NCBI GenBank assembly: GCA_002261195.1
Contig: MVBO01000034.1
Span: 62,001 to 126,000, forward strand
DNA from: Bifiguratus adelaidae
Taxonomy: Eukaryota; Mucoromycota; Endogonomycetes; Endogonales
Length of the DNA stretch: 64,000 bases
Direction of reading: 5' to 3'
Shown: positions 6,825 through 63,898 of the stretch, piece by piece
Layout of the letters: every line of letters begins with the position of its first letter
Position numbering within the stretch: position 1 is the first letter of the stretch
Notes under the pieces: model-generated
The model's input: the letters and a program-made list of their open reading frames with translations, nothing else
What the model was told of the DNA's origin: nothing
The model's database searches: none
Program-made: the position numbers and the translations under genes

Positions 6825-7896
6825 CTATCCACCCTTCACTGCTCGTTGAACCTCGTCTGCAAAGTCTCCTTCCGGTTTCTCAATGCCTTCACCGGCTTCC
6901 CATCGCTGAAATCCGAGAATGCGCAATGCCAGTCCTTGCTCTTTCTCGAAGGCAGCCACGGCTGACCCCACGGTGGTGTTTGGATCGAGAATGAAGGGTT
7001 GATGTAAGAGAGCCCCAGAGATATTTTGGTCCCCTTCTGCGTCAATGCTTGTTGGATTAAATCCAACCACCTGCCGGGCGAGATGTCGTCCAAATGCCTT
7101 GGCCTTTGTCAGCGTTTCGAGAGCGAGCGTTGGAGAGGATGCAGAGGCTGAAACGCCGAGGGCTACTACGCCTCCAATCTTACCCGTTTGCTCGTCACCA
7201 CCGTGGAGATAGCCTGGTGTCAACAACATGCCCGCGTCCGTCTGACCTCCAATCACCGATACACGTCGCAAAGCAATATTCTCTCCAAGCTTTCCTATCG
7301 TCTCAACAATCTTCTCCTTGACCGTGCCGACAAGTGGCCCCTCGGTAGCAGGAGAATCCGGGTGTGGAAGTATTGGACTCTCCAATACTTGATCTACGGG
7401 CAAGGCTTCCACAACACTCGATCTGTTATCGTTCAAAATGACACTGGTCGAAGCGATCTGAGTGATGAGCTGCTTGAATATGGCGTTTCTGGAGACAAAG
7501 TCTGTCTCGCAGTTGAGCTAAGTGGGACCGATCAGTCTTGCCGATCAAACGCGAGGTGAATGGCTTCATTACCTCTACAAGAGCCGCGCGACTACCTCCA
7601 AGGCGATCTTTGCCCAAGCTCTCGAGCACCGTCAACCCGATCAGTCCTTCTCCAGCTGTCCGTCCTGCCACCTTGGCCGCTTTCTTGAGACCACTCGCTT
7701 GCGCGTCCTCATGCAGCCATGCAAGCGCCTTGTCGTAATCGTTCTCATTCTTGGACAAGGCTTCCTTGGCTTTGGTCATGCTCACTTCAGTCTCCTTCCG
7801 AAGCCGTGCCAGCAGTGCAATCGAAGGCTTGACGGTAGAAAAGGCCCTCGCGGGCATCGCGCGAGAAAGCATCTCGAATTGTTTTTTGGACCACAT
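6825..7896 (-). CDS. TSF1: Mitochondrial translation elongation factor Ts
   Basis: Two exons on the minus strand, 7573-7896 and 6825-7517, with a 55-bp intron (7518-7572) give 338 residues. The N-terminus is basic and rich in Ser/Ala (PARAFSTV), as expected of a mitochondrial presequence. The EF-Ts UBA-like domain follows (LRKETEVSMTKAKEAL, then ALAWLHE), and the signature LNCETDFV appears directly after the intron, which fixes the splice. The family exchanges GDP for GTP on mitochondrial EF-Tu. The start at 7896 is the first in-frame ATG. The gene shares a 125-bp upstream region with the plus-strand gene at 8022. Confidence 0.93.
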
Positions 7897-7935
7897 CTTC
7901 ACACCTTTGCATCTCCTTGACCTTGGGGCTGGTCT

Positions 7936-7937
<2 letters not shown>

Positions 7938-7966
<29 letters not shown>
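7938..7966. repeat. (CT)n microsatellite in a divergent promoter
   Basis: A perfect CT dinucleotide run of 29 bp lies in the 125-bp gap between the EF-Ts start (minus, 7896) and the start of the plus-strand membrane protein (8022). It continues into a looser pyrimidine tract up to about 7995. Pyrimidine-rich leaders are common just upstream of fungal start codons, so it is probably part of the plus-strand gene's promoter or 5' leader. Confidence 0.9.
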
Positions 7967-7969
<3 letters not shown>

Positions 7970-8021
7970 CTCTCCTTCCTTACCTTCCTTTCTCTACACC
8001 GGAGAGTGTGACATTGTGACC

Positions 8022-8714
8022 ATGGCAGATGCCGCGCCGGCCGCGGACAAGGCCAAGAGCAAAACGCTCCAGCACAAGACCACCGCAGCCACCACCACGC
8101 CCACGACGTCTACCACCGTCTCGTCGTCCTCGTCCTCGGAAGCTGTCGCTGCTTCCACTCCTTCCATCTCGTTCGGTTCTGTTTCGGTCGCTTCAGTCTC
8201 GGCTACGCCTTCTACCGCATCCTCTCACACCAACACGGGCGCGATTGCTGGGGGTGTCATTGCAGCCTTCATTGTCCTCGGTTTAGCCGCATTTCTGGTC
8301 GTATGTTTCTATCGCAGGAAACGCAAAGCCTCCAGCGAGGCCGCGTATGATACCATGGCATGGGACAGGCCACAGACGTCGTCCGGTACAGGATTAGACA
8401 GGTCCACGCCTGCACGGCCACCGCCGCATCGACCGAGACCACCCGATATAGGGACCAACTTGCCGAGCGCCCAGTTTGTGTCCCCCGCTTCACCCCTGTT
8501 GCGGTCGCACATCTCAGGAGATGGCGCTCAAAAGCGGTGGAGCGTGGATGCTACGCCCGGGCGAGGCCCGTTGATCGAGTACGATGCCCTAGGTCGACCT
8601 CTACCCACAAAAGCACCCAATCGAGATAGTTTTGTCGCCATGACTCGTGAGGGAGAAGTAGAAGTGGGCCGAGAGCGGCCGATGAGTATGATTCCTCGTA
8701 TTCTTGAAGATTGA
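8022..8714 (+). CDS. Ser/Thr-rich single-pass membrane protein
   Basis: A single-exon gene of 230 residues starting at the first ATG, 8022. An N-terminal domain of about 70 residues is almost entirely Ser/Thr/Ala and likely to be O-glycosylated. It is followed by one strong membrane span (GAIAGGVIAAFIVLGLAAF), a basic stop-transfer patch (YRRKRK) and a polar cytoplasmic tail with Pro-rich stretches. The layout matches fungal wall-stress sensors (Mid2/Wsc type), but no WSC cysteine domain is present. No cleavable signal peptide is visible: the protein begins MADAAPAADKAK. Either the span acts as a signal anchor or an upstream exon with a signal peptide has been missed. Function is otherwise unknown. 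Confidence 0.65.
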   Translation: MADAAPAADKAKSKTLQHKTTAATTTPTTSTTVSSSSSSEAVAASTPSISFGSVSVASVSATPSTASSHTNTGAIAGGVIAAFIVLGLAAFLVVCFYRRKRKASSEAAYDTMAWDRPQTSSGTGLDRSTPARPPPHRPRPPDIGTNLPSAQFVSPASPLLRSHISGDGAQKRWSVDATPGRGPLIEYDALGRPLPTKAPNRDSFVAMTREGEVEVGRERPMSMIPRILED

Positions 8715-8797: not shown

Positions 8798-11700
8798 TTA
8801 AAATCCCGCTTGCATGACGTTACGAAGAGAATACATGATCTCGGCTTGTATCCGTGCCTCAATGGCCAATAGAGCCACATGGCATTTCTCTTCAGGTCGC
8901 AAATTGAGACCAATTCTTTTCCAGTCGGCATACCGAACTGTTTCTGGTCGACGGATCACTTTCTTAATGTACGCTTTGGTTTGCGGATTGAGATAACGTC
9001 GGAGGTTGGAATAATCGTAGTCTTCTTGATTCACGCCCAACAATCGGAGAGCATAGTACCAAAGTGCTTGGCGTAGAGGCCAGGTGTCAATGGGAAGCTC
9101 TGATTGTGTTTGCGAGAGACTATTGCAACCTGTGTCAATAGCAGCTTCAGAGACATCAGGTGTTACTTACCTCCAATCGGTAATGTTCAAGACCTCTTGA
9201 AACATGTCATCCAGCTCCTCACCAATACCCGGTAGATACTTGGAGATGGTTGAAATGCCATGATCTTCCCAATTGTACTCGCCAAGCTCAAAGCTCGGGA
9301 GACCACTTTGCGAAAAGTCTTCCGAGGTGATGACACGAATGGTGCCCGTAGGCTCTTTGATGTGAGCCTTGTCCCCATCCGTATCCCCATCCGAGCTTCT
9401 TCGCGAGCCGTGATCAAGGAACCGAGAAAGGTCTTCATGGACTTGGTTCACTCTCATGGTTCGCTGATGAATGCCGTCGGAGGTTTTAGACGCGTCCCCG
9501 GATGCGGATGAGCCTGCAAGGTTGATGATTTGCGACTCGGTCACTAAACGCGGTCAATTTCTAAACATCGATCACGACAAAATCCGACTCACATTCATTC
9601 GTCGCCTCCTGTGTACCAAAGAGTGCAACGCCATCCTCATCCGAAGATGTGTCGTCTGCGTTTCCGTCTTTGAGCTCAAAAGTCTGTACAGCTTCTACAT
9701 CCTCCAGACTGCCTTCGCCTTCCGTCGGCTCAAGAACCGATTTGCGCCGAAGCAGCTGGATCATGCGAGTGGTGCGAAGATCGATGATTGGATCGCTTTC
9801 TGTGGTCGGTCCCTTGCTTCTCAGCTCCAGATCAGGTAAAGGTAACGAAACACCAAGGCCATAGGCAAATGAATCAAAGACAGTTGGACCGAAGCTTTTA
9901 CTGTAGGATCCGGAAGAGGTGGATGAAGGAATGGAAAAATGTCGAGAAAGACGACGAGGTATTCCGTTTGCTTCAAGCGCTTCACCGGTGAGGGTTACAT
10001 AGTCCCGTGTCTCTCCTTGTTGCGATGCACTTATCGAATCGGGGTGGAGATCGATGTGCTCAACGGAGACCTGAAGCGAGCTTTGCAACACGTCACTGAC
10101 TGTGGATTCGCTTTCTACTTGTGTTGGAACGGCATCCAGGTCTCCTGCGGTCCAGTTTTCTCCATAAAGTTCATGCTCGATGCCTAAACCTTCTTCATCT
10201 TGGCTATGTGAGGTGCCAGACACGTAGTAACCGCCACGAGTATCGACTTCTGGTACTATACCGCATCCGAGAACAAAGCTACTCAAACCGTGATACGTGA
10301 TCAAGACGCACATGGCTTGTATGAGCTCGGCTTTAGTCCAATGCTCGCCTGCTACAAACCCGCCGCCGTGCGTATCACGCAAGAGTGGGGCGATATGCTC
10401 TTCCGGGCTGAGACGCCAAGGCTCTCGCGCTAAAATGCTTGAAATCTTGGATAGCTTTCGGAGTTTGATGGGTGCGTGTGAAAGAGACTCTAGCCACAAA
10501 GGGTCACCACTGTTATGCAGAAACTCTGACTTTTGGATTGATACGAGGAATTGGCAAGAATGCTCCGCCGCGGCCTAACAAAAGATATGAGACAATCAAC
10601 TCCACCCATCAAGATGAACATACCATGATCGCAATGTAATTACGCCAGCTGAGGTCGAGAGGTCCAGAAGGTTTTCGCATGAGCGAGCCAATGATGACCT
10701 CGAACTTCTCATAAAATGTCGGAAAAAAAGCCATGACACGTGCAACGTTGCTCAGGCGACCGGATTGAAGGAAACCATGTTCAAGGACCGACCGAACATA
10801 ACTGTCGCATGGTCTGCCGGGTGCAAATCCGTCCCAAATGTTCTCTATCGCCATCGGATTGGCATTCTTCCACGAAGGCACCGCATTTGCATCCTTATCA
10901 CTCATTGCAACAGTACTTGAAGGTTTAGGCAGACTGGGAGACGTTTCCGGGGTGCGATTGGCCACTCTTGGCAGGGTTTCTGTCGATACCCCTGGAGAGC
11001 TGGAGAAGTCTCGGCGCTCCTCATCATTAGAATACAACGACCGTTGATCGGCGCGAGGTGAAAAGGCAAAATCGTAGGGCCGAGGATATGAGATACTAGA
11101 ATAGGAAGGGTAATGGCGGAGTGAGGGTGAAGCTGGGATTGTGTAGCCATCGTCGGCTTCTTCGAGTGAAAAGATATCGTTCATTGAAATAAAGAATGAA
11201 GGAGAAGGATAAATGGGTTCTGGAACAGGTATGTTTGCCGACTGCGATCCAGCGTGAGCAAGAGGGCTTTCGCAAAAGTCTGACTGGCATACCTTTAAAT
11301 CACGTAGGAAGCGACCAAATGCCTTCCTCACGTCTCGATACGGACAGCTGATAGAAAAACGAAGGATTGCTAGAAGATACAAGCGAAGTTGCTCATGAAG
11401 TTCCTCATTTTCACTGTCTTCTTGTATCTGCATCAGTTCCTCGCGCGAATGTGACATACGTGGGGCAGTTGTAGATGGAGAGGCGGCGGAAGGAGTAGAT
11501 GTCAACTGCTGCCAGTGAAAAGAAGAAGGAGTAGCGGATGAGCCTGTTGTAGTTGAGACTAGTTCTGGCACGAAAACCTTAGTGGTAGCTGTAGGAGTAG
11601 CTGGAGAGAGAGAACCTCGCCTGCTTTGTTGACGGGAGGAAGCCGATGACTCAAAAGAGAATGTAGGAGATGGTGGCAAGTCTCGATCCAGACGCTTGAT

Positions 11701-12237
11701 CCCGAGGACATTTATCTGCTCTGTGTTTTGATCCTTAGAAGATGAAGCTGTTGGTCGAGGTGTCGATGGACCGCTGCTTGCCAGAATACTCTGAGGCGCC
11801 ATGTTGGGCAACGCTGCTGCTTTCCCCAATTCACCCGACCACTGATAGACGTCCTTGACGTAACTTTTCACGACCTCCAGAATCTTTTGCAACTGTTCAT
11901 GTCGTTGTTCCAACGAGTCTATCTGTAGCCCCGCGAAAAGCTCTATGCGTTGTCGTGACCACTGCCGTCGCCTTGCCTGGGTATCGCGCAGTACTACCGG
12001 ACATTATCGGATCGCACAGGAAAGGCACCGGATAGAGCATATCGGCGACGTAGGTAGAACAGGAACAGTACAAGAACCGCGGTAGATGCATTCGTAGAGC
12101 GGAAGTTTGAAGAGTACAGGAGAGCAAGAGAGCAAAGAAAGCAACGCGCAGCAGGTTAGCACCTCGAACACTTTTTTCGCGTTCACTTGTCACTTACCCT
12201 CGTCCTGGTTAACTCGTATACCCACTATTGCACTCAT
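8798..12237 (-). CDS. Sestrin homologue (PA26 family)
   Basis: Exons on the minus strand: 12198-12237, 10624-11918, 9593-10574, 9171-9543 and 8798-9119, which keep one frame and give about 1,003 residues. After a Ser-rich extension of some 400 residues comes the sestrin N-domain core, DLSWRNYIAIM-AAAEHSCQFL. It is split by an intron and keeps the cysteine (about Cys452) that sestrins use in alkyl-hydroperoxide reduction. Then come GGFVAGEHWTKAELIQ and, in the C-domain, YNWEDHG, LGVNQEDYDY and LLAIEARIQAE, the latter matching the leucine-sensing C-domain of animal sestrins. In animals sestrins restrain TORC1 through GATOR2 and reduce oxidative stress. The last three introns are 49-51 bp. Exon 1 and its 279-bp intron are the least certain part. 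The acidic/Ser-rich insert between the two conserved halves is also long. Confidence 0.88.
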
Positions 12238-27140: not shown

Positions 27141-28994
27141 TTACGCACGCACATTCACAGTTCTGCTGGCTTCGAACCCAATGTTGGCTACGGCATCCAT
27201 GATGGCTGTTTGATGGTTACCCATAGTCTGAGCTTGAATGCCGAGTTGTTCGTCGGTCCAGATAGGCTCAACAAGCTTGGGGGTTGCCTCACCGACACCA
27301 GCACGGCCGCCTTCATTCTTCCAGTCAGCGACACGCTTGAAGCCATTCTTTTGCCAAATGGTCTCCAAAGCATCCACCAAATGATTCAACATCTTAGGAG
27401 TGTGACCAGGAGTGGGAGTGATGCGAAGACGTTCCTCGCCCTTGGCAACCGTAGGATAGTTGATACTCTGGACATAGATGCCGTGCTCGCTCAAGAGCTG
27501 ATCACTGGCCAGCTTGCAAACTTCGGCCTCGCCAACAAGGACAGGGACAATATGCGAAGGGTTCGGAACAACAGGGATGTCCAGATCGGCCAAACGAGCC
27601 TTGAGCATACGAGTGTTGAGCTGTTGCATTTGACGCTCTCGATTCGATTCCTTCAGATACTTCACAGAGGTGAGAGATCCAGCGACGACAACAGGAGGGA
27701 GAGAAGTAGTGAAAATGAATCCAGGCGCGTAGGAACGGATCATGTCGATCAAAGATGCAGAGGCAGCAATATAACCACCGACAACGCCAAACGCCTTGCC
27801 CAAAGTACCAGAGATGATGTCAACCTTGTTGAGCACCGTGGGGTCGGTCAGGGAAGTGTTGCGAGCATTATGCTCAAAATCCAAGTGCTCGGCGACACCA
27901 GCACCGCGAGGTCCGTACATGCCAACTGCGTGCACTTCGTCCAAAAAGGTGATAGCACCGTACTTCTTTGCCAGGTTGCAAATGGCGTCGATGTGGCCTA
28001 TGGAGCCAGACATTGAGTACACGGACTCAAATGCAATGATTTTGGGTGTCGATGGATCGACAGCCTTGAGTTGCTCCTCGAGATGCGCCAGATCATTGTG
28101 CCGGAACACGCGCTTTTGAGCTCCGGAATGACGGATACCTTGGATCATGGAGGCATGATTGGAAGCATCAGAGAAAATGACGCAGCCGGGTAGCTTTCCG
28201 GCCAAGGTGCTGAGCGTGGCATCATTGGCCACGTAGCACGAGGAAAAGACGAGTGCACTCTGCTTGTGGTGGAGATCCGCCAACTCAGATTCAAGCCGAA
28301 GATGCAAATCGGCGTTACCAGCGATGTTGCGCGTACCGCCAGCACCTGCACCATAACGATCGAGGGTGCGCCTGGATCTCAATCAATATCATCGTTGAAA
28401 GATACGCAACCATCAACTACTTACTTCATGCTCTCAATCACTTGCGCATTTCTTCCCATACCAAGGTAGTCGTTGGAGCACCAAACCGTCACCTCGTCCT
28501 CCAGTCTGGCGGTGTGAGCCATTGGAAACTTTTGCGCGAGGCGATTAATGTTGTTGAAATAACGATAGCTCTTGTCTTGATGCTTCTTCTCGAGCTGCTC
28601 ATTATAGAAAGCTTCGTAGTCAAAAGGCTTGCCATTGACGGCATGCGAGGTAGGCATGGCAGCTAAAACGGAATGTGAGACAACGGCTGATAGGATGGAC
28701 GATCAAGGTACCTTGAGCATGGTTGATGCCAACAGAAACAGTGGCAGCCTTAACAACTTCCGACTTGGACGGCGCACCTAAAGCAGCAGTTGTTCCGAGA
28801 GCCCGTTCTTGCATAGCCTTGCTCATAACGGGACAATGAGCAGCCTTTTGCAAGAGTGCAGATGTCTGCTTTCCGGCAAGATTCATACCAGGGTGCATAG
28901 GAGCTGCACTGGTAGAGAGCTTGCGGAGAGTCGCAGCGGAGGTACGGTGAAGAAAAGGGCAGGTTTTTGCAGCCTGCTTGAGTACTTGTTCCAT
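27141..28994 (-). CDS. HEM1: 5-aminolevulinate synthase, mitochondrial
   Basis: Three exons on the minus strand from ATG 28994. The presequence and leader ([18 protein letters not shown]) contain two heme-regulatory CP motifs, TCPF and HCPVM. The catalytic core contains [36 protein letters not shown]-like [12 protein letters not shown] and the PLP-lysine region [13 protein letters not shown]. It condenses glycine and succinyl-CoA to 5-aminolevulinate, the first step of heme synthesis. CP motifs in this family mediate heme feedback on import or stability. Length is about 600 residues. A GA-repeat lies just upstream of the start. A 268-residue open frame on the opposite strand is only a shadow. 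Confidence 0.96.
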
Positions 28995-31894: not shown

Positions 31895-32252
31895 CGTGGA
31901 TAATGATTCAGGGCGAGCTCTTGTTATATAAGTAATGCCATATCCGAACGTCGGCACGGAGACCCAACCGATATCACACAATGGGTTAAGCGTGTGTCAC
32001 CTCAGCACAACCATGGTTCTCTTTTGGGCAAAGGTCTCAAATAGCATCCCGGGGAAACAGATACACGCAAGCAAGGCCTCTTAAGCAGGGAATCGTAGCG
32101 GTTCTCGCAGGACTTGACATCCGCCCCGATGCATTTTTGATGGCGCCAAGATTGCGTGTTTGTTTGATTTATGACCGTACATACGGTCCTGGGCAAAGGC
32201 ACGGCATGTCCACCTTGTTGTAATATAACTTGCAGGTCTTTGGCATGCAAGA
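31895..32252. other. Intergenic region
   Basis: About 360 bp between the divergent hexosaminidase pseudogene and the coiled-coil gene. No feature is supported beyond being the likely promoter region of both. Confidence 0.45.
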
Positions 32253-34847
32253 ATGCAGAGCAACGACCCCATATATCCATTCTCAGCCGTGCCAACATGT
32301 CTAGTCGATATCGTAATGCGTGAATTTGAACGGTTGCCAAAACTAGCCACAGGTGCCCCTCTTTGCTTGCTCATGCCTCTGTCAACATTCTTTGCAAGGC
32401 GGACGGAGTCTCCAAAGGCTAAAGGCGACGGAGCTGACGATACTTCAAGCCCTCCCGCAGATAGGTCGAGTATATCCTCCGTTACCTCCACACCGGAGTC
32501 TTGGGTGTCTCATTCTCGATCTGGGACTCAATCAACCGCAGCGACCACACCGACGCACCTCAGTAGCCGATCGTCCCTCTTTGCACAGTTTATGCGGACA
32601 GCCAATAAGCCAGTAAATGCGATACCTGAAGGTAGTCCTACCGGACCTTCTGAGGTGTTACTACTTGCTCGAATAGCTTCACTCGAGGAGGCTCTTGAGC
32701 AGTCCGCACTTAGGCTCGCAGAAAGTACGCATAGAGAGATCGAACTGCAATCAAAGCTGGTACAGCATGAGTACCCAAGTAACAATTCATCTGATGAAGC
32801 ACAAGAGGATGACCCCGAAACTCCCAATGAATTTGTAGAAACGCAAGAGGACGTAGATCAAGTGGATGGCCAGCAATCGGCCGTCGTTGACCAGAGCGAA
32901 TCTGGCGATCCAGACGTCATGTCTGAAACAGTTCTTGTAGAGAATATAAGCACCGACTCGAGCACACAAGATCAAGATTCGGTGATACGTGAACTGCGAT
33001 GCGAACTTGAAAGATACAAGAGCCGCCTGGAATTCTTACAATCTCATACCCGGTCCGCGTATGCTGATATGTCCGAGCAGATCACAGAATTCATGCAAAA
33101 CATCAATCGCAGATCGCTTAGCTCTACTGCTCCATCTGTCGTTCGCACGTTCCTTGGCCATCTTCAATCTCAACTTTCGTTCGATAACGTGGCGCTCGAG
33201 TCCGAGACATCAGCTGAGACAATTGTCTCGCTGCAATCAAGCAATGATCTCCTCAGGGAGAAAGTACATCAACTCTCCGCCTCGACGTCGAGAGCAGTGC
33301 GGAATTTAAAGGAAAAGTTGCATATTCAGTCTGAGAAGCTCTTGGACCTCGAACAAAGTCATCGCTCGTCACTTTTGGAGAACGCTTCGCTCAAATTACA
33401 TAATAGACAGTTGAAAGAGTCCAGCGAACGTGCAGATCAGCAAGTCAAGACTTTGCAACAACGATTGACGGATCTGATCCTAGAGCATTCCAAGGCCAGT
33501 GCGCAGGCACGAAAGCAAAAGGACGAGATAATCGTGCGTCTCGAAGCCGAGTTGAAAAATGCAAAGCAAAGCTGGCGTGCAGAGTGCAACGATTTTCGAC
33601 AGGAAATTGCGACAAAGGAGGCGGAGTTGCAGGATCGTCAAGTCAATATCCGTGAATTAGCGGCGGAAAAGGATCGCTTGGAGAGCCTTCATATCGAAGC
33701 TGACAGCCTGAGAAGTGCGAACGCGGATCTCGAGCGGGCGCTAGCGGAACTCTCTTCAGGAATGGAGAGTGTTCTTCGAGAGAATGCGCTGGAGAAGGTG
33801 CACGTAGACGTGGCAGAACAAGAGGTGAGACGTCTTCGGGAACTTCTTGACAAGACCAGTTTGCACGAAATGGCGGATGGCGATTCTTCGGAGGATCCTC
33901 GTTCTCGTCGGCTCGTACTCTTGGAAGGTCTCAAGAAAGAGACAGAAGCACGCTTGGAAGCTGTACGACAAGAGAAGGTGGAAACCGAGGATCTGTTGAA
34001 GCAAGCCAAAGATTCCATACGAGAACTCAAATCTCAGGTCCGCGTTCTCACCAACGAAAAAGAAGCTTTAGAAGGCATGCATTCCAAGTGTCAAAACGTT
34101 CAAACAACCCAATCCAAGCAAATCATACAGTTGGAGGATGACTTGCAAGCCCAGAATACACTGACAACGTCTCTGAGTACAGCGCTAGCCGAAGCTACAG
34201 GTCGGAGTCACCAGACTATTGAGACGCTGCAGGAGCGCGTCAAATGTCTGGAAGAGGATCTGCAGAAACATCGTGACCGTTTGCAGTCCGCCAACACGAC
34301 TATAGAGCAGCTGCACACCACACTGGCCGAACTTTCTAGCAGCCAATCGGAGCTTACAGCCTCTCGTGATCACTTGCAAGCAATTACCTCGACATTGCAA
34401 GCCTCGGCTGCCTTTGCTGAATCAAATTGCAAGCATTTGGAAGCCAAGTTGGAGCTCTTGCAATCATCGCATGCCAACAAAATGGAGAAATTAATTGCAG
34501 ACCATTCGTCCGCTCTGCATGATCTGCAGGAGGCTCATGCAAAGGAGTTGGAAAATGCGAAGGCAACGACTGCTAGCTTCGACGCAAACAAACTACATAC
34601 TGCCGAGAGCCAATTGAAAGAGTTGCAATTTGAGCGCGAGGATGCGGAAGAGCGCCTGAGAATTCGCCTTTTAGCGCTCGAGAAGACGGCCGAGTTGAAT
34701 CATATGCAAATAGAGGCCGTGCAAAAGAGAGCAAAGCCAGCTCGCATGGAGTGGCAGCGGCTGCTCAAACTGCTGGACGAAATGGAAAGACGGAGTCACC
34801 GTCAGGCGCGATACTATCCTGTCCAACGTAGACAATCCATCTATTAG
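32253..34847 (+). CDS. Long coiled-coil protein, function unknown
   Basis: A single-exon gene of up to 864 residues. The first ATG is 32253; in-frame ATGs at 32313 and 32373 (MPLSTFF) are alternatives, and the latter removes an odd N-terminus. Residues up to about 120 are Ser/Thr/Pro-rich. From about residue 130 (LLLARIASLEEALEQSAL) to the end the protein is almost continuous heptad-rich coiled coil, with runs such as LRCELERYKSRLEFLQ, and it has a basic C-terminus (RRSHRQARYYPVQRR). There is no motor, GRIP or other domain. It could be a Golgi, septal or spindle-pole tether. Similarity searches of coiled coils are unreliable, so I assign no function. Confidence 0.7.
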   Translation: MQSNDPIYPFSAVPTCLVDIVMREFERLPKLATGAPLCLLMPLSTFFARRTESPKAKGDGADDTSSPPADRSSISSVTSTPESWVSHSRSGTQSTAATTPTHLSSRSSLFAQFMRTANKPVNAIPEGSPTGPSEVLLLARIASLEEALEQSALRLAESTHREIELQSKLVQHEYPSNNSSDEAQEDDPETPNEFVETQEDVDQVDGQQSAVVDQSESGDPDVMSETVLVENISTDSSTQDQDSVIRELRCELERYKSRLEFLQSHTRSAYADMSEQITEFMQNINRRSLSSTAPSVVRTFLGHLQSQLSFDNVALESETSAETIVSLQSSNDLLREKVHQLSASTSRAVRNLKEKLHIQSEKLLDLEQSHRSSLLENASLKLHNRQLKESSERADQQVKTLQQRLTDLILEHSKASAQARKQKDEIIVRLEAELKNAKQSWRAECNDFRQEIATKEAELQDRQVNIRELAAEKDRLESLHIEADSLRSANADLERALAELSSGMESVLRENALEKVHVDVAEQEVRRLRELLDKTSLHEMADGDSSEDPRSRRLVLLEGLKKETEARLEAVRQEKVETEDLLKQAKDSIRELKSQVRVLTNEKEALEGMHSKCQNVQTTQSKQIIQLEDDLQAQNTLTTSLSTALAEATGRSHQTIETLQERVKCLEEDLQKHRDRLQSANTTIEQLHTTLAELSSSQSELTASRDHLQAITSTLQASAAFAESNCKHLEAKLELLQSSHANKMEKLIADHSSALHDLQEAHAKELENAKATTASFDANKLHTAESQLKELQFEREDAEERLRIRLLALEKTAELNHMQIEAVQKRAKPARMEWQRLLKLLDEMERRSHRQARYYPVQRRQSIY

Positions 34848-35196
34848 AGAAGTGTACATGATACCCGTGTTATGTGAATACTGTGTACAATTGTTGTAGT
34901 TAAGTATCGACCGCGAATTGATGCACTCGGACCTGGAACGCTCAGCACTCATATCCATCAAGCTGTGTGACCCTGGTCATACTTCAGCTGGAGTCTGTGC
35001 CACCGATCAACCAAAACTCAAAAGGGTCGGGATCGTTGCGTGTTTATCTGGAGCTTTCCTTCCGCGCATTGTTCTCGGTACCCTGGATTTTCACTTTTCA
35101 GCACCGGACGCCCATTGCCGGTAACCAAATGTTTTAATAGACGCGCCTTCATTTTTAGGCGCGATTCCATGCTCAAACGACTATTTCGGCGTCATC
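34848..35196. other. Gap upstream of the MHR regulator gene
   Basis: About 350 bp with no confident gene. A short frame starting at ATG 35170 (MLKRLFRRHHDYD) overlaps the start of the next gene in another frame and ends at 35267. It may be an upstream ORF, or the true first exon if an intron was missed. Confidence 0.4.
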
Positions 35197-37035
35197 ATGA
35201 TTACGACGCTCCCACGGTCAAGTTCAAGCCGGAAGATACGTGGAACTGGTTCAAGCAAGCGAGATGATAGGAGCGAATCAGTTCATGACCAGACATCTAC
35301 TGCGAACGCACCGAGCAATATCGGACCGTCCGATCCTACAAAATCCGATTCCAGGTTAAATATTACTAGGACGCCCACAGGTTTAGCCATACAAGCGAAC
35401 GTGGCTACTATCGCTGAACTCGCGCAGCGCATCCAGCATATACGCACCAATACACAGGCCGAGAAGGCGAACAAGCGTATCGCCTCGCCTGCAACCATCG
35501 CGTTCACAACTAAAAATGTGCTCAATATCAATGGTGAGACAACAGGAGAAGTGGATTCATGGAGCGAGGAAGAAGAAAGCGAAATGGCATTTACAGAACT
35601 GCCGGGTACGAGACCCGATGAGCTTATGTTTATTGTCATTCAACAAGCCCTGCGATTTCCATGCTGTTTCCAGAGCAAGCTCTTGCCCGTGGATAGGGAA
35701 TACTTTGAACGTCAATGGTACATCGTACAGAGAACCGGGGCCCCGACTTCGCGCTGTTTTGTCGCCGCTCTAGCTGCTCAAGCATCGCATTCAACTGCGA
35801 TATCGCATCGCTTTTGGCCTCGGGAAGACTGTGTGAACTTATCCAGGGCATTCCAAAGTTTAGCTCGGACATATCTTCAGGAATGCTTTGATGAGGTGGA
35901 CTTGCCGCTTGTCCATAGTGCTGGGACGCTGGCATATGTAGCTTACACGCTCGACAACAACTCGAATTACTCCGTTCTGTTGATCTTTTTGTTCATGCGG
36001 ATGACCTTGATGTTGCGACTCTACGAATTTGATGTACGAGCCATCGAGACTGAGAGTTCATCGACATTTGAAGAGACACACAAGGCGGTCTTGTGGTGGC
36101 GTGTTCTGTGGCGGGATACCTGGACATTCATGACAAATACCAACTCGAATGCAACCAATATCTCAAGTCGCGACGTGCTTGGAATACCGAGTCGCATGCC
36201 ACAATTTATGATACATTGCAGTGATTCTTCCAAAGCATCGTATCAAGCACAATTCTTGCAGGCAAAATTGTGTGCTATCATTCTGGAGTTTTGGAACCAA
36301 GTACTGGTCAATCGCGACGAGAATATCATGTTTCTTGAGCAACATGCCCTGCAAGAGACGCATCTTCGACTGTTGCACTGGGAAAGTACGCTTCCTGCAG
36401 GTTGGAAGCTCGACTTCAGCCTCCCTCACCAGACTTTGGTTAAGAAGATAAGGCACAAATCCTACGACGCACGTCGCACGTGGATCCTGCATACCTATGG
36501 ATCCTACTTTACAACTGTGATTTGGGTGCATATTCGCTTTCTAAGACCGGCCGACGCATTCAATGCTGGATCAGTCGGAACAAAGTCCGCGAAAGGAACC
36601 ACCAATACTCCCAATATTGACCAATTTCTGGAAGGATTGGATCCATTGACTCAAGAGGGCTTCCGAAGTCTCCTGCTGGATCAACCCTCCGTTGCCCTCC
36701 TCAACCTAATCTCATACCAACACGCAATCCGTTCGGGCTTCAACATGCTCGTTCTCACACGTCTCTTTGTAGAGACAAACGTTAGTTGCGGCTACATCCA
36801 TCCTTGCTTTTGGGCGGTTCACAATCTCGGAATATGCCTGGTGCAATCACCTCACAACGCCATCCGAGAAATTGGAAAGCAACTTGTATACTACAATTGG
36901 CACATTGTTAGGGAAACAACTTTATTCAAACGAAAGTTGGCGCACATTGATACACATGTATCTGCACTAGAAGCAGATATGCTCAAATACTCAATAGACA
37001 GTAGAAGCATGCAGGAGGCTTGTCGGCTTCAATAA
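35197..37035 (+). CDS. Fungal transcription-factor MHR-domain protein
   Basis: A single-exon gene of 612 residues. After a polar N-terminus of about 140 residues comes a region that looks like the fungal-specific transcription-factor domain (middle homology region): LMFIVIQQALRFPCC, FERQWYIVQRTGAPTSRCF, FQSLARTYLQECFDEVDLPL, LFMRMTLMLRLYEFD and VLWWRVLWRDTW. This domain usually follows a Zn2Cys6 cluster, but no six-cysteine cluster is present in frame, and none is visible in the preceding 350 bp. The protein may be a regulator without its own DNA-binding domain, or the first exon may be missing. The assignment of the domain is by pattern only. Confidence 0.65.
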   Translation: MITTLPRSSSSRKIRGTGSSKRDDRSESVHDQTSTANAPSNIGPSDPTKSDSRLNITRTPTGLAIQANVATIAELAQRIQHIRTNTQAEKANKRIASPATIAFTTKNVLNINGETTGEVDSWSEEEESEMAFTELPGTRPDELMFIVIQQALRFPCCFQSKLLPVDREYFERQWYIVQRTGAPTSRCFVAALAAQASHSTAISHRFWPREDCVNLSRAFQSLARTYLQECFDEVDLPLVHSAGTLAYVAYTLDNNSNYSVLLIFLFMRMTLMLRLYEFDVRAIETESSSTFEETHKAVLWWRVLWRDTWTFMTNTNSNATNISSRDVLGIPSRMPQFMIHCSDSSKASYQAQFLQAKLCAIILEFWNQVLVNRDENIMFLEQHALQETHLRLLHWESTLPAGWKLDFSLPHQTLVKKIRHKSYDARRTWILHTYGSYFTTVIWVHIRFLRPADAFNAGSVGTKSAKGTTNTPNIDQFLEGLDPLTQEGFRSLLLDQPSVALLNLISYQHAIRSGFNMLVLTRLFVETNVSCGYIHPCFWAVHNLGICLVQSPHNAIREIGKQLVYYNWHIVRETTLFKRKLAHIDTHVSALEADMLKYSIDSRSMQEACRLQ

Positions 37036-51962: not shown

Positions 51963-53083
51963 TTAAGCGGCAACGTCACCGCAGGAAGACTCGACGACGA
52001 TACTCGTAACTCGGTAGGGGTCAATGTTGGAAGCAGGACGACGGTCCTCAAGGTAGCCCTTGCCTTCCTTGGCGACGTGACGGGGAATTCTGATGGAAGC
52101 ACCGCGGTTTGCGACACCATAAGAGAACTGAGAAATGTGACCAGTCTCGTGACGTCCAGTGAGTCTCTTGTCATTGTCTTCACCGTAAACGGCAATGTGG
52201 TCCATGTGCTTCAAGGACATCTTCTTGATGGCATCCTCAATAGCCTTGATACCACCCTCTTCACGCATGGCAGCGGTAGAGAAGTTGGTGTGGCAGCCAG
52301 CGCCGTTCCAGTCACCTGGGATAGGCTTGGGGTTCAAGCTGACGACAATGGCAAAGTCTTCAGCAACGCGGTTAAGGAGGTAACGAGCAATCCAAAGGTG
52401 ATCACCCATGTCGATGCCTTCGCAGGGACCAACTTGGAACTCCCATTGACCGGGCATGACCTCAGCGTTGACACCAGAGATATTGACACCGGCGTACAAG
52501 CAGGCACGGTAGTGGGCTTCGACGATATCACGACCAAAGACCTTGTTGGTACCTACACCACAGTAGTAAGGACCTTGCGGGCCGGGGAAACCGCCTTTGG
52601 GCCAGCCGAGAGGAGTACGACCGTCTTGTTGGAACAGAGTATACTCTTGCTCAATACCGAACCAAGGGTGAGTTTCAGCGTAGGTTTCCATGACCTTCTT
52701 GCAGTGGTGACGATAGTTGGTGGCATTGGGAGTGCCATCGGGGTTGTAGGTCTCACAGAGAACCAAAATGTTTGAGCCGCCGCGGAAAGGATCGGCAAAA
52801 ATGGCAGCAGGGACGAGAAGGACATCTGAATCATGGCCAGGGGCTTGCTCAGTAGAAGAACCATCAAAGTTCCAGTCAGGAAGGTCTAGCAAGTGCGAGT
52901 GAGTACAGGTGGCCTTCCGCAAGTCCAATTCAACTTACCAGCAACAGAAGCAGGTACCTTGTCTAAAGTCTTGGTCTTTGAACGGAGTTCGTTAATTCCA
53001 TCAATCCAGATGTACTCGGCTTGAACAAAGCCTTTCTGATCCAGAGCAAGGTATTTTTGAAGGGTAGGAGCAACTGAAGCCAT
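51963..53083 (-). CDS. GLN1: Glutamine synthetase
   Basis: Two exons on the minus strand, start ATG 53083, about 355 residues. Exon 1 ([20 protein letters not shown]) joins exon 2 at [20 protein letters not shown]. The family signatures are complete: [45 protein letters not shown] and the adenylylation-site-like region [20 protein letters not shown]. The latter holds the catalytic Arg residues and is followed by [15 protein letters not shown]. It condenses glutamate and ammonia to glutamine with ATP. Strong codon bias produces a long shadow frame on the opposite strand. Confidence 0.97.
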
Positions 53084-59257: not shown

Positions 59258-60665
59258 TCAATCCCGGTCGGCATTCTCTGGACGCAACATGCGTACAGTC
59301 TTACCGGTACGCCAGATCTCACTCTCCCGAATCTCCTTCAATTCCTCCTCCAGCTCGCTTCGGTAGTTGGGACGAGAGTTCTTGTCCAGAGATCGAGCAG
59401 TCTCTGTGCCATTTCGGACAGACTCGTACAGCTTCTCAAACACGGGCTTGGCGGCGTCGTGGAAGGGACGCCACCAGTCGAGAGCACCACGTTGAGCGGT
59501 GGTAGAGCAATTGGAGTACATCCAATCCATGCCATTCTCACCAATAAGGGGGAAGAGGGATTGAGTGGCCTCTTCGACAGTCTCGTTGAAAGCCTCAGAG
59601 GGGGTATGGCCATTGGCACGGAGGACATCATATTGAGCTTGGAACATGCCTTGGATAGCACCCATGAGAATACCACGTTCACCGTAAAGATCAGAGTATA
59701 CCTCCTTTTGGAAGGTGGTTTCATAAAGGTATCCTGAGCCGACACCGACACCAAGAGCAATTGCACGCTCGCGGGCCTTGCCAGAGATGTCTTGGAAGAC
59801 GGCGAATGAAGAGTTAATTCCGCGACCTTCTTGGAAGAGACGACGAACAGTGAAACCGGAGCCCTTGGGGGCTACCAAGATGACATCGATATCCTTGGGA
59901 GGAATAATTTTGGTTTGATCATTGTAAACAACAGAGAATCCGTGGGAAAAGTAGAGGGTTTTCCCCTTGGTGAGGTAAGGCTTCAACTTGTCCCAGAGAG
60001 CAGTTTGTGCGGCATCGGAGAGCAAATTCATGATGACGGTACCCTTGTCGCAGGCTTCCTCGATGGGGAACAAGGTCTTGCCAGGGACCCAACCCTCGTC
60101 AACAGCTTGGTCGTATGAGCGGCCGGGGCGCGAACCAATGATGACATTGAGACCATTGTCACGCATGTTGAGAGCTTGGCCACGGCCTTGAGGACCGTAA
60201 CCGAGAATGGCAAGAGTATCATCCTTGAAGACCTCCAACAACTTATCGCGAGGATAGTCAGATCGTTCATACACGGTCTCTTGGTCTCCGCCAAAGTCCA
60301 GAGTCTTCATAGTACGGGTTTGGTTGGTGTTCTAAGGCAAAGAGAACTGTTAATAGGGGTCCAGCATCACCGTCGGTGTGGAGGATCAGTTATTTCGGGC
60401 AGTTGTCGGCATGTTGCACAAGCATCACCTCACGCCTTCGGCGAGCATCTACGACACATCCGCAACATCCAAACCCGTCCCAATGCCCCAACAGTCCATG
60501 TCCGACCCCTGTCCATTCACTTACCATCATTTGAGGCAATGCCTTGGAGGCAACGCGAGGCGCCAACATGCCGATAGCAGGGCGAGCACCAGCGCGAACA
60601 GAGGTCATCAAAGACCGCCTTGAGACGGCTCTGAAAGCTGTGGAAACTGCGCGTGAAGCAGACAT
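59258..60665 (-). CDS. ILV5: Ketol-acid reductoisomerase, mitochondrial
   Basis: Two exons on the minus strand from ATG 60665. The presequence is SRAVSTAFRAVSRRSLMTSV. Exon 2 starts after an intron ending CTTAG and gives KTLDFGGDQETVYERSDYP. The NADPH site is LGYGPQGRGQALNMRDNG. KKARI-domain features follow: VAPKGSGFTVRRLF, GYLYETTFQKEVYSDLYGER, EETQ-like VEEATQSLFPLI and MDWMYSNCSTTAQRGALDWW. It converts acetolactate or acetohydroxybutyrate to the dihydroxy acid in valine and isoleucine synthesis. Divergent from ILV2, the preceding enzyme. Confidence 0.97.
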
Positions 60666-61666: not shown

Positions 61667-63898
61667 ATGCTTTCATCTTCAGCGAGGCAGTGTACGCCAC
61701 GCGCTGTCCACGGATCTTTGCGCCATCTTCATCTCTCTTCATCTTCTGCTCATGGCTTATTGCCCACATCATCTTCATCAACTCCTCTTTCTGTCGTGCA
61801 ATCACATAAATCGGCTTTAAACGCCGTAGCCGTCCGAGCGGTGGGATTTCATAGTTGGCGAAAGCGACAACAGTCTGCTGCCTCACATGCCGCGGCTCCT
61901 CAGACATATCCGGCGAATGCTACGCAGCCGCCACCCTCCGGTCTACCTCCGCTTCACCCGCTTACCTCAGCAACAGCTCCTGCGAGCAAACCCATGGACG
62001 ATTCGTTTATTGGTCTGTCTGGTGGAGAGATCTTCCACGAAATGATGCTGAGGCAAGGCGTAAAACACGTTTTTGGATATCCTGGCGGTAAGTGTTGCGC
62101 GTGCTTTCATCTTGAATTTGTGCGCATGATCTGATTATCTTAATATTTGCAGGCGCTATTCTTCCTGTGTTTGATGCTATTCACGATTCAGATCATTTCG
62201 AATTTATTCTTCCTCGGCATGAGCAGGGTGCTGGACACATGGCTGAGGGGTATGCTCGCGCAACGTAAGTGTTGACTTGTCATTGGATACATCAGATGAG
62301 ATGTTTACTGTCATCTTAGCGGAAAACCCGGTGTAGTGCTCGTCACTTCTGGTCCCGGAGCCACCAATGCCATCACACCCATGCAAGATGCTCTTTCCGA
62401 TGGTACACCAATGGTTGTGTTTTGCGGTCAAGTCCCTACCTCCGCTATTGGTACGGATGCTTTCCAAGAAGCCGACGTCGTTGGCATTTCCCGGCCCTGC
62501 ACGAAGTGGAACGTGATGGTGAAGGACATCACTGAACTTCCAAGGAGGATCAATGAAGCTTTTGAAATCGCTACGAGTGGCCGTCCCGGACCTGTGTTGG
62601 TGGACTTGCCCAAGGACGTGACTGGCGGCATTCTCACCCGACCTATTCCAACAGGCTCAGCTATTCCAAAGAGCCCTATACATTTGACCAACACGGCTGC
62701 CAGCGCGTTCGCGGAGCACCCCGACCAACATATACCGGAAGCACTTGCTCGCGTTGCTGAGCTCATTAACAAATCCAAGCGACCTGTCATCTACGCTGGT
62801 CAAGGTGTCTTGGCTCATCCTGACGGTCCAGCCGTGCTCAAGGCTCTGGCCGATCAAGGAAACATTCCAGTAACTACCAGCCTATGTGGACTCGGTGCAT
62901 TCGATGAGTTGGATCCTAAATCACTTCACATGCTCGGTATGCACGGTTCTGGATATGCCAACATGGCCATGCAAAACGCCGACGCCATCATTGCTCTTGG
63001 TGCTCGCTTTGACGATCGTGTCACTGGTACCTTGCGCCTTTTTGCGCCTGAAGCCAAGAAGGCTGCTCTCGAGAACCGTGGCGGCATTTTCCACTTTGAA
63101 ATTATGCCCAAGAACATTAACAAGGTCGTTGAGGCTACGCATGCTATCGAAGGCGACGTGACTAAGAACGTTTCGCGCATGTTGCCCATGATCCAAACTT
63201 CTCCTCGCACAGAGTGGTTCGACACTATTGATCAATGGAAGAAAGCCTATCCCTGGACCTACGCTGAACCCGAAACTGCTGAAAGCAAGCTGAAACCGCA
63301 ACAGATCATTGACGCGCTTGACCGAGCCACTCGTGACATCAAGGATAAGGTCATTATCACCACTGGCGTCGGTCAGCATCAGATGTGGGCTGCTCAGCAT
63401 TACCGCTGGAGATACCCTCGCACCTTTATTACCTCTGGAGGCCTTGGCACGATGGGATACGGTCTGCCATCCGCCATCGGCGCCAAGGTTGCTTGCCCAG
63501 ACAAGATTGTCATTGACGTTGACGGTGATGCCAGTTTCAGTATGACGGCCATGGAGCTTGCCACGGCAGCACAATTCAATATCGGTGTCAAGGTGCTCTT
63601 GCTCAACAATTCCTTCCAAGGCATGGTCAAGCAATGGCAAGATCTCTTTTATGAAGAACGATACTCTGGAACGACGATGGTGAACCCTGATTTTGTGCAA
63701 TTGGCAGAAGCCATGCACGTCAAGGGTCTCCGCATTTCCAAGAAGGAGGACATTGAACCCGTGATGAAGGAGTTCCTTGAACACAACGGACCGGTTGTCT
63801 TGGATTGTGTCGTTGAAAAGAATGAGCATGTGTACCCAATGGTACCAGCAGGCAAGGGTCTACAAGAGTTTATTGTTCACCCCAAGCTTCGAAAATGA
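61667..63898 (+). CDS. ILV2: Acetolactate synthase catalytic subunit
   Basis: Three exons from ATG 61667, about 690 residues. A long Ser/Ala-rich mitochondrial presequence (to about residue 120) leads to [20 protein letters not shown]. The glutamate that activates thiamine diphosphate is in [18 protein letters not shown]. Then come [39 protein letters not shown] and [12 protein letters not shown] (FAD region). The ThDP site is [20 protein letters not shown] followed by [20 protein letters not shown]. It makes 2-acetolactate or 2-aceto-2-hydroxybutyrate, and its product goes to ILV5. It is the target family of sulfonylurea-type inhibitors. Confidence 0.97.

What the first reader, a model, noticed from the sequence alone, without database searches (positions are those of the whole stretch)
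8798..12237. A sestrin in a fungus, with the redox cysteine and leucine-sensor domain both kept
Sequence shows the split motif IAIM-AAAEHSCQFL, GEHWTKAELIQ, YNWEDHG, LGVNQEDYDY and LLAIEARIQAE in order over about 1,000 residues, with a Ser-rich N-terminal extension of some 400 residues and a long acidic insert between the halves. Sestrins are mainly described in animals as TORC1/GATOR2 regulators and alkyl-hydroperoxide reductases. A fungal form with both halves raises the question of whether amino-acid sensing through GATOR is older than animals.
Basis: partly seen in the sequence, partly recalled or inferred. Interest (0 to 1): 0.78.

Follow-up and report, generated by a model that had tools for sequence, protein, structure and literature searches.

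The report
Fungal sestrin with altered sensor pocket
This is a genuine gene for sestrin, a nutrient-signalling protein best known from animals, in an early-branching fungus; such fungal sestrins are already in databases and in print, but the pocket that holds leucine in human sestrin looks rebuilt in them, so whether they sense leucine at all is open.

Summary
Window 8798-12237 (minus strand) holds one six-exon gene for a 1,011-residue protein matching Pfam PA26/sestrin (E 1.7e-93) and human SESN2 (about 2e-63). It is the deposited protein BZG36_02052 of Bifiguratus adelaidae, named Sestrin in UniRef; a 2025 survey that names this species reports sestrin as conserved across Mucoromycota. So it is an ordinary, vertically inherited fungal sestrin, already known. 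GATOR1 genes (three of three) and three GATOR2 genes (MIOS, WDR24, WDR59-like) are in the same genome.

'Both kept' is half right. The redox cysteine (C125) is there, but Y127 is Phe and H132 is Gln; in human SESN2, Y127F and H132A abolish peroxidase activity. In the leucine site the residues that hold the amino acid's backbone (R390, E451, T374, T386) are kept, but lid, latch and side-chain residues differ: H86->F in 67 of 67, Y375->D in 64 of 66, W444->G in 63 of 66 non-animal rows. Most likely it binds GATOR2 and restrains TORC1 under amino-acid shortage, with weak or no peroxidase activity and a ligand that may not be leucine. The mechanism is inferred from sequence.

The parts
8798..12237 (-). 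Sestrin gene (BZG36_02052), six exons, 1,011 aa
   Evidence: spliced model, all five introns GT-AG, frame intact; PA26 E 1.7e-93; contains deposited protein P0001 as residues 78-1011
12198..12237 (-). exon 1, start ATG; not in the deposited model
   Evidence: with exon 2 it encodes the N-terminal block that resembles the family consensus
11293..11993 (-). exon 2, N-terminal extension
11242..11292 (-). 51-nt intron, in frame, missed in my first model
   Evidence: GT-AG; absent from the deposited protein
10624..11241 (-). exon 3, end of N-terminal extension and start of SESN-A half
9593..10574 (-). exon 4, AAAEHSCQFL (C125 equivalent), WTKAEL (WSLAEL equivalent), first part of the acidic insert
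10554..10556 (-). codon of the cysteine equivalent to SESN2 C125
   Evidence: seventh codon of exon 4, counted by hand; alignment
9171..9543 (-). exon 5, end of insert, YNWEDHG, lid residues T-D-W
8798..9119 (-). exon 6, rest of SESN-C half: DT..LR (T386, R390), EDYDY (GATOR2 motif), G (W444 site), RPEEKCH (HSEKVH equivalent)

Best explanation
It is the single sestrin found in the genome of Bifiguratus adelaidae, inherited vertically within the fungi. Most likely it works as an amino-acid-responsive brake on TORC1: unliganded sestrin binds GATOR2 on WDR24 through its W(S/T)xxEL and (D/E)DYDY surfaces and so relieves GATOR1, which switches off the Rag GTPases; a free amino acid held by the kept backbone clamp (R390, E451, T374, T386 equivalents) would release it. 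Its peroxidase activity is probably weak or lost, because the proton-relay His and the catalytic Tyr are replaced. The side-chain pocket, lid and latch differ from the animal form in a way shared by nearly all non-animal sestrins compared here, so leucine is not a safe guess for the ligand. Shown here: sestrin identity, kept and changed residues, partner genes, tree. Inferred: GATOR2 binding, ligand release, loss of peroxidase activity.
For: PA26 E 1.7e-93; Sestrin2 structures matched over both halves, about 2e-63. GATOR2 motifs kept: W189 69 of 69 and D407 as D/E 63 of 64 non-animal rows. Clamp kept: R390 62 of 64, E451 as E in 62 or D in 4 of 66, T386 56 of 64. Partner genes in the same genome: NPRL2, NPRL3, DEPDC5/Iml1, MIOS, WDR59-like, WDR24 (C-terminal zinc domain and propeller exon in one 4.2-kb stretch), two clear Rag-type loci, a tuberin-domain match. 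The WDR24 arginine that contacts Sestrin2 in an AlphaFold model (R228; PMC12136191, passages) falls on the R of GGRDKMVKVWD, also in the fungal WDR24 (counted by hand from the letters of 9dx2_H with the start number of 7uhy_C). In human SESN2, Y127F and H132A abolish peroxidase but not mTORC1 inhibition (PMC4674687, passages). Tree: the window sits with Jimgerdemannia, Umbelopsis and Mucorales, 100/99 support.
Against: No expression, binding or ligand data. WDR24's GGRDK stretch looks like a common WD40 pattern, and yeasts without sestrin were not compared, so its conservation is weak evidence. SEH1 and SEC13 were not tested. KICSTOR evidence is one marginal match (KICS2, E 2.8e-4, 23.2 bits for a cut-off of 22). 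S190, needed for GATOR2 binding in human SESN2 (PMC11429811), is Thr here and Ser in only 24 of 69 rows. The pocket change may mean that no amino acid is bound at all. The 406-residue N-terminal region and the 286-residue insert may have other roles.
Confidence: 0.7

Rival explanations
1. The fungal sestrin is a leucine sensor just like human SESN2, and the changed lid and pocket residues are neutral or compensated (for instance the Trp/Tyr at the N376 site replacing the indole of W444).
For: Backbone clamp residues kept. Trp or Tyr at the N376 site in 51 of 65 non-animal rows. Artemia has Leu at the W444 site, so animal sestrins also vary there; fly sestrin binds leucine with Kd 100 uM against 20 uM for SESN2 (PMC11429811). 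PMC11836306 treats fungal sestrins as leucine sensors (passages). The excess of changes at pocket positions is not significant (p 0.10).
Against: H86 and Y375, the latch pair that seals the lid over leucine, are both replaced in nearly all rows; an engineered W444E is part of a Sestrin2 triple mutant used as apo-locked (PMC12136191, passages). Weakly: two branched-chain amino-acid synthesis genes lie in the same window, so leucine need not come from outside.
Confidence: 0.3
2. The protein is mainly an antioxidant (alkyl hydroperoxide reductase) and its tie to GATOR2 is secondary.
For: C125 equivalent kept in 66 of 68 non-animal rows, Tyr at 127 in 65 of 68.
Against: H132 kept in 0 of 68 and H113 in 0 of 46; this window's protein also has Phe for Y127, the very change that abolishes activity in human SESN2; GATOR2-contact residues W189 and D407 are at least as conserved.
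Confidence: 0.07
3. Gene-model artefact: the exons belong to different genes.
For: No transcripts were available here.
Against: All five introns are GT-AG and 49-204 nt long, the frame is intact; the 24 rows of the first alignment, 23 of them from other records, share invariant columns in both halves in the same order; the deposited protein joins the same exons from exon 2 on.
Confidence: 0.01

Closest known systems
Sestrins of Mucoromycota (Jimgerdemannia, Umbelopsis, Mucorales, Rhizophagus, Mortierella)
   Same: Same family, same two halves, same N-terminal conserved blocks, same residues at latch, lid and pocket (F, D, G). Nearest by score is Jimgerdemannia: 57% identity over the best-aligned 32% of the query, 45% over the alignment.
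   Different: Phe at the 127 site (1 of 68 rows with a letter; 65 have Tyr). Total length 1,011 aa; the 23 others have 607-1,037.
Human SESN2 (PDB 5dj4, 6n0m, 9lwf)
   Same: Both AhpD-like halves, C125, GATOR2 motifs, R390/E451/T374/T386/L389/R448/H454.
   Different: H113->N, Y127->F, H132->Q, H86->F, Y375->D, N376->W, T377->S, W444->G, F447->L, S450->E; about 330 extra N-terminal residues and a longer linker.
AhpD-type alkyl hydroperoxide reductases
   Same: SESN-A fold and one catalytic cysteine in human SESN2 (PMC4674687, passages); the cysteine is kept here.
   Different: The second cysteine is a leucine in SESN2 and here (CQFL); the proton-relay histidine is absent here.

Membership tests
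Sestrin (PF04636, PA26) | Significant match to the PA26 profile over both halves | tested here: met
   E 1.7e-93, 314.5 bits, two stretches; exon by exon in the genome
Sestrin (PF04636, PA26) | Catalytic cysteine of SESN-A (C125) | tested here: met
   AAAEHSCQFL; 66 of 68 non-animal rows
Sestrin (PF04636, PA26) | GATOR2-binding motifs WSLAEL and DDYDY | tested here: met
   WTKAEL and EDYDY; S190 is Thr, D406 is Glu, both reported as frequent in non-metazoans
Alkyl hydroperoxide reductase activity as in human SESN2 | C125, Y127 and H132 all present | tested here: not met
   C kept, Y127 is Phe, H132 is Gln; Y127F and H132A inactivate SESN2
Leucine sensor of the SESN2 type | Backbone clamp R390, E451, T374, T386 | tested here: met
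   all four present
Leucine sensor of the SESN2 type | Lid, latch and side-chain pocket: H86, Y375, T377, W444, F447, L389 | tested here: not met
   F, D, S, G, L, L respectively; only L389 is kept
Leucine sensor of the SESN2 type | L261 in the linker | tested here: inconclusive
   lies in the stretch that does not align with human SESN2
Leucine sensor of the SESN2 type | Binding of leucine and release from GATOR2 | not testable with these tools
   needs purified proteins
GATOR pathway present in the genome | GATOR1 (NPRL2, NPRL3, DEPDC5) and GATOR2 MIOS, WDR24, WDR59 | tested here: met
   WDR59 only by its C-terminal part, so 'WDR59-like'
GATOR pathway present in the genome | SEH1 and SEC13 | not tested
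   no specific profile at hand; WD40 proteins

The most novel reading that the evidence does not exclude
Fungal sestrins form an amino-acid sensor class of their own: they keep the clamp for an amino acid's backbone (R390, E451, T386) and the GATOR2 surfaces, but have exchanged the latch pair (H86-Y375 to F-D) and the side-chain wall (W444 to G, with Trp/Tyr often appearing at the N376 site), so that they report an amino acid other than leucine, or none, to the same GATOR2 hub. The aphelid Amoeboaphelidium shares F, D and G, so this form would go back at least to the common ancestor of fungi and aphelids, and high-affinity leucine sensing would be an animal specialisation.
Probability: 0.35. 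Interest if true: 0.65.

Novelty: already known. Interest (0 to 1): 0.3.

Why it matters
The finding as stated is known. What it makes testable is a point on which two papers differ: one treats fungal sestrins as the ancestral leucine sensors (PMC11836306), the other suggests that leucine-sensing motifs arose in metazoans (PMC11429811). A residue-level contrast at lid, latch and pocket, with the backbone clamp unchanged, gives a direct binding experiment to decide, and shows which residues to exchange between human SESN2 and a fungal relative in vitro.

Tried and rejected
Considered and rejected: exons of different genes (see rivals); horizontal transfer from an animal (the tree puts the window inside the fungi and the two animals on one branch with 100/100 support); a 'first fungal sestrin' (databases and papers hold many).

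Castor1_N found nothing, but nothing rang in the controls either, so it says nothing; four ACT_7 matches were not identified. The third PF17120 match (L007) lies in a long Ser-rich RING-type frame and was not taken as WDR59 or WDR24; that profile also rang, below its cut-off, in one of 14 control genomes. The Rag profile rang in 2 of 14 controls and has a third, weak place here (E 1.9e-4). PDB names in the 9dx entries do not agree with those of 7uhy for what look like the same chains (for example the best match is labelled SEC13, SEH1); I went by 7uhy. The paper on leucine-bound Sestrin2 is not held.

Limits of the comparison: all three protein searches used fungal or mostly fungal queries and each scored only the roughly 7,990 candidates sharing most words. 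An enrichment test is not significant: of 58 positions conserved in at least 90% of non-animal rows, 15 differ from human; of the 5 published lid/latch/pocket positions among them 3 differ (H86, Y375, W444), Fisher one-sided p = 0.10 (position K175, with one row only, dropped). So the claim rests on which residues changed, not on an excess of change there.

Rows: counts use the 69 non-animal rows of 70, fragments included, gaps left out of each denominator. Exceptions at the W444 site are P0058 and P0061 (Diversispora, Asn) and P0067 (Acaulospora, Arg); at Y375 P0066 and P0067 (Acaulospora); at R390 P0061 and P0067. The two Diversispora proteins also have Ser for C125.

Full report
What is there. 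The minus strand from 12237 to 8798 carries one gene with six exons: 12237-12198, 11993-11293, 11241-10624, 10574-9593, 9543-9171 and 9119-8798. All five introns are GT-AG (204, 51, 49, 49 and 51 nt). The product has 1,011 residues. My first model read the 51-nt intron 11292-11242 as coding, because it is in frame; the deposited protein P0001 leaves it out and so does the corrected model. The deposited protein, 934 residues, is identical to residues 78-1011 of the model. The 77 residues that it lacks resemble a conserved N-terminal block of the related fungal proteins (consensus), so the deposited start is probably too far in; no transcript was seen.

Identity. hmmscan against Pfam gives PA26 (PF04636) alone at E up to 1, with E 1.7e-93. 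phmmer against PDB sequences gives five distinct Sestrin2 sequences and nothing else at E 0.001, best 1.7e-63, with both halves aligned. The six-frame search of the genome (18.6 Mb, 286 contigs) finds three PA26 matches, all exons of this gene. A search of about 5.8 billion proteins finds the same protein as BZG36_02052 of Bifiguratus adelaidae, named Sestrin in UniRef. The species is placed in Mucoromycota, Endogonomycetes.

Relatives and tree. Three protein searches returned 24, 33 and 39 rows, 70 distinct proteins in all: 1 animal (Artemia), 11 without an organism name, the rest fungi and one aphelid (placement of the named species partly recalled). A tree of 30 rows (29 of the 70, chosen by lineage, plus the human core) on 320 columns puts the window protein with Jimgerdemannia, Umbelopsis and Mucorales (100/99); the Glomeromycotina, Mortierella, Syncephalis, Sorochytrium/Paraphysoderma and aphelid proteins fall outside, and the two animals on one branch (100/100); the root is drawn at the midpoint only. 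This is what vertical descent predicts.

The redox site. C125 is kept (66 of 68 rows). In the window Y127 is Phe and H132 is Gln; the H113 site is Asn, and none of 46 rows has His there. Human SESN2 with Y127F or H132A falls to the level of a peroxidase-inactive control, while mTORC1 inhibition stays (PMC4674687, passages). H132 is absent in all 68 non-animal rows with a letter there, in line with a published 1.9% of non-metazoan sestrins (PMC11429811). Phe at 127 is found in the window protein alone among the 68. So 'redox cysteine kept' is true as sequence, but is not evidence of peroxidase activity here.

The leucine site. In SESN2 leucine's amino and carboxyl groups are held by E451 and R390, and its side chain by L389, W444 and F447 (PMC6412019, passages); T374 and T386 are needed, and Y375 pairs with H86 to seal the lid (PMC11429811). 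In the window E451, R390, T374, T386, L389, H454 and R448 are kept; H86 is Phe, Y375 Asp, N376 Trp, T377 Ser, W444 Gly, F447 Leu, S450 Glu. Across non-animal rows: H86->F 67 of 67, Y375->D 64 of 66, W444->G 63 of 66; R390 62 of 64; E451 is E in 62 and D in 4 of 66. Artemia has His, Tyr and Leu at the three sites. The alignment between R390 and E451 has no gap, so the W444 assignment is safe; a three-residue gap lies between the lid and T386, so the lid residues are a little less safe. The published survey already says that the TYNT motif is not found in non-metazoans and suggests that leucine-sensing motifs evolved in metazoans; in what I read of it (its section 3, first of two parts, and its discussion) it does not mention the H86->F, Y375->D, W444->G set. 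A word search for SESN2 with W444, Y375, lid and latch listed three papers, of which I saw listings only, apart from this survey. The other survey treats fungal sestrins as leucine sensors (PMC11836306, passages). The excess of changes at pocket positions is not statistically significant (p 0.10).

The pathway. The genome has NPRL2, NPRL3 and DEPDC5/Iml1 (best E 3e-32, 7e-48, 4e-105). For GATOR2: MIOS (PF17034 match; a neighbouring frame best to yeast Sea4, 7e-26, and MIOS, 4e-11), a WDR59-like C-terminus (WDR59 of 7uhy 5e-20; PF17120) and WDR24 (zinc domain, WDR24 of 7uhy 2e-10; propeller exon, WDR24 7e-36). Two clear Rag-type loci and a weak third, one tuberin-domain match, a marginal KICS2 match. 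SEH1 and SEC13 were not tested. So the main partners that a sestrin needs are there.

How it most likely works. By analogy with SESN2, which binds GATOR2 when unliganded and leaves it when leucine is bound, the fungal protein would bind WDR24 of GATOR2 and let GATOR1 switch TORC1 off when its ligand is scarce. The interface motifs and partners support the first step; the kept clamp supports an amino-acid ligand; its side chain is open. The peroxidase function is probably weak or gone in this species. All of this mechanism is inference from sequence.

What is known. Sestrin in Mucoromycota is in PMC11836306, which names B. adelaidae in its main text for another protein, LAMTOR1 (passages; its supplements, where the sestrin list would be, were not readable here). 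PMC11429811 aligned 213 non-metazoan sestrins and says that sestrin is absent from Basidiomycota and plants. A third paper says that sestrin homologues were lost in fungi (PMC10957897, passages), which this gene contradicts for at least this fungus. The finding is therefore already known; the residue-level contrast is a modest addition. Word searches for 'sestrin' with Mucoromycota and with Bifiguratus gave only PMC11836306, in a library that lacks most subscription journals.

Noticed in passing
window 59261-60331 (-) and 62300-63895 (+): Ketol-acid reductoisomerase (best PDB match 7toc, a mitochondrial enzyme) and acetolactate synthase (NCBIfam TIGR00118), two successive steps of branched-chain amino-acid synthesis, lie head to head about 2 kb apart. 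They are 47 kb from the sestrin gene; no link to it is shown, and the pairing was not compared with other fungi.
   Followed up: partly
window 27144-28382 (-): 5-aminolevulinate synthase (NCBIfam TIGR01821, E 3e-164).
   Followed up: no
window 51966-52934 (-): Open frame of 323 aa that matches glutamine synthetase GlnII nearly end to end (E 9e-136, 452 bits for a cut-off of 500).
   Followed up: no
window 6825-8109 (-): Elongation factor Ts in at least two frames, the N-terminal part of mitochondrial type, downstream of the sestrin gene on the same strand.
   Followed up: no
window 7938-8714 (+): Open frame of 258 aa with a Ser/Thr-rich stretch, one likely membrane helix and a basic tail, read by eye from the sequence; it overlaps the 5' part of the EF-Ts frame on the other strand; no Pfam family above its cut-off.
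   Followed up: no
window 32229-34844 (+) and 35125-37032 (+): Two long open frames of 872 and 636 aa, neighbours on the same strand, without a Pfam match at E 0.001.
   Followed up: no
P0052 (metagenome protein, 1039 aa): Listed with a protein-kinase domain (PF00069) and PA26 in one protein: a fusion or a mis-joined gene model.
   Followed up: no
P0058 and P0061 (Diversispora): Two sestrins in which the C125 equivalent is Ser and the W444 site is Asn, unlike nearly all other rows.
   Followed up: no
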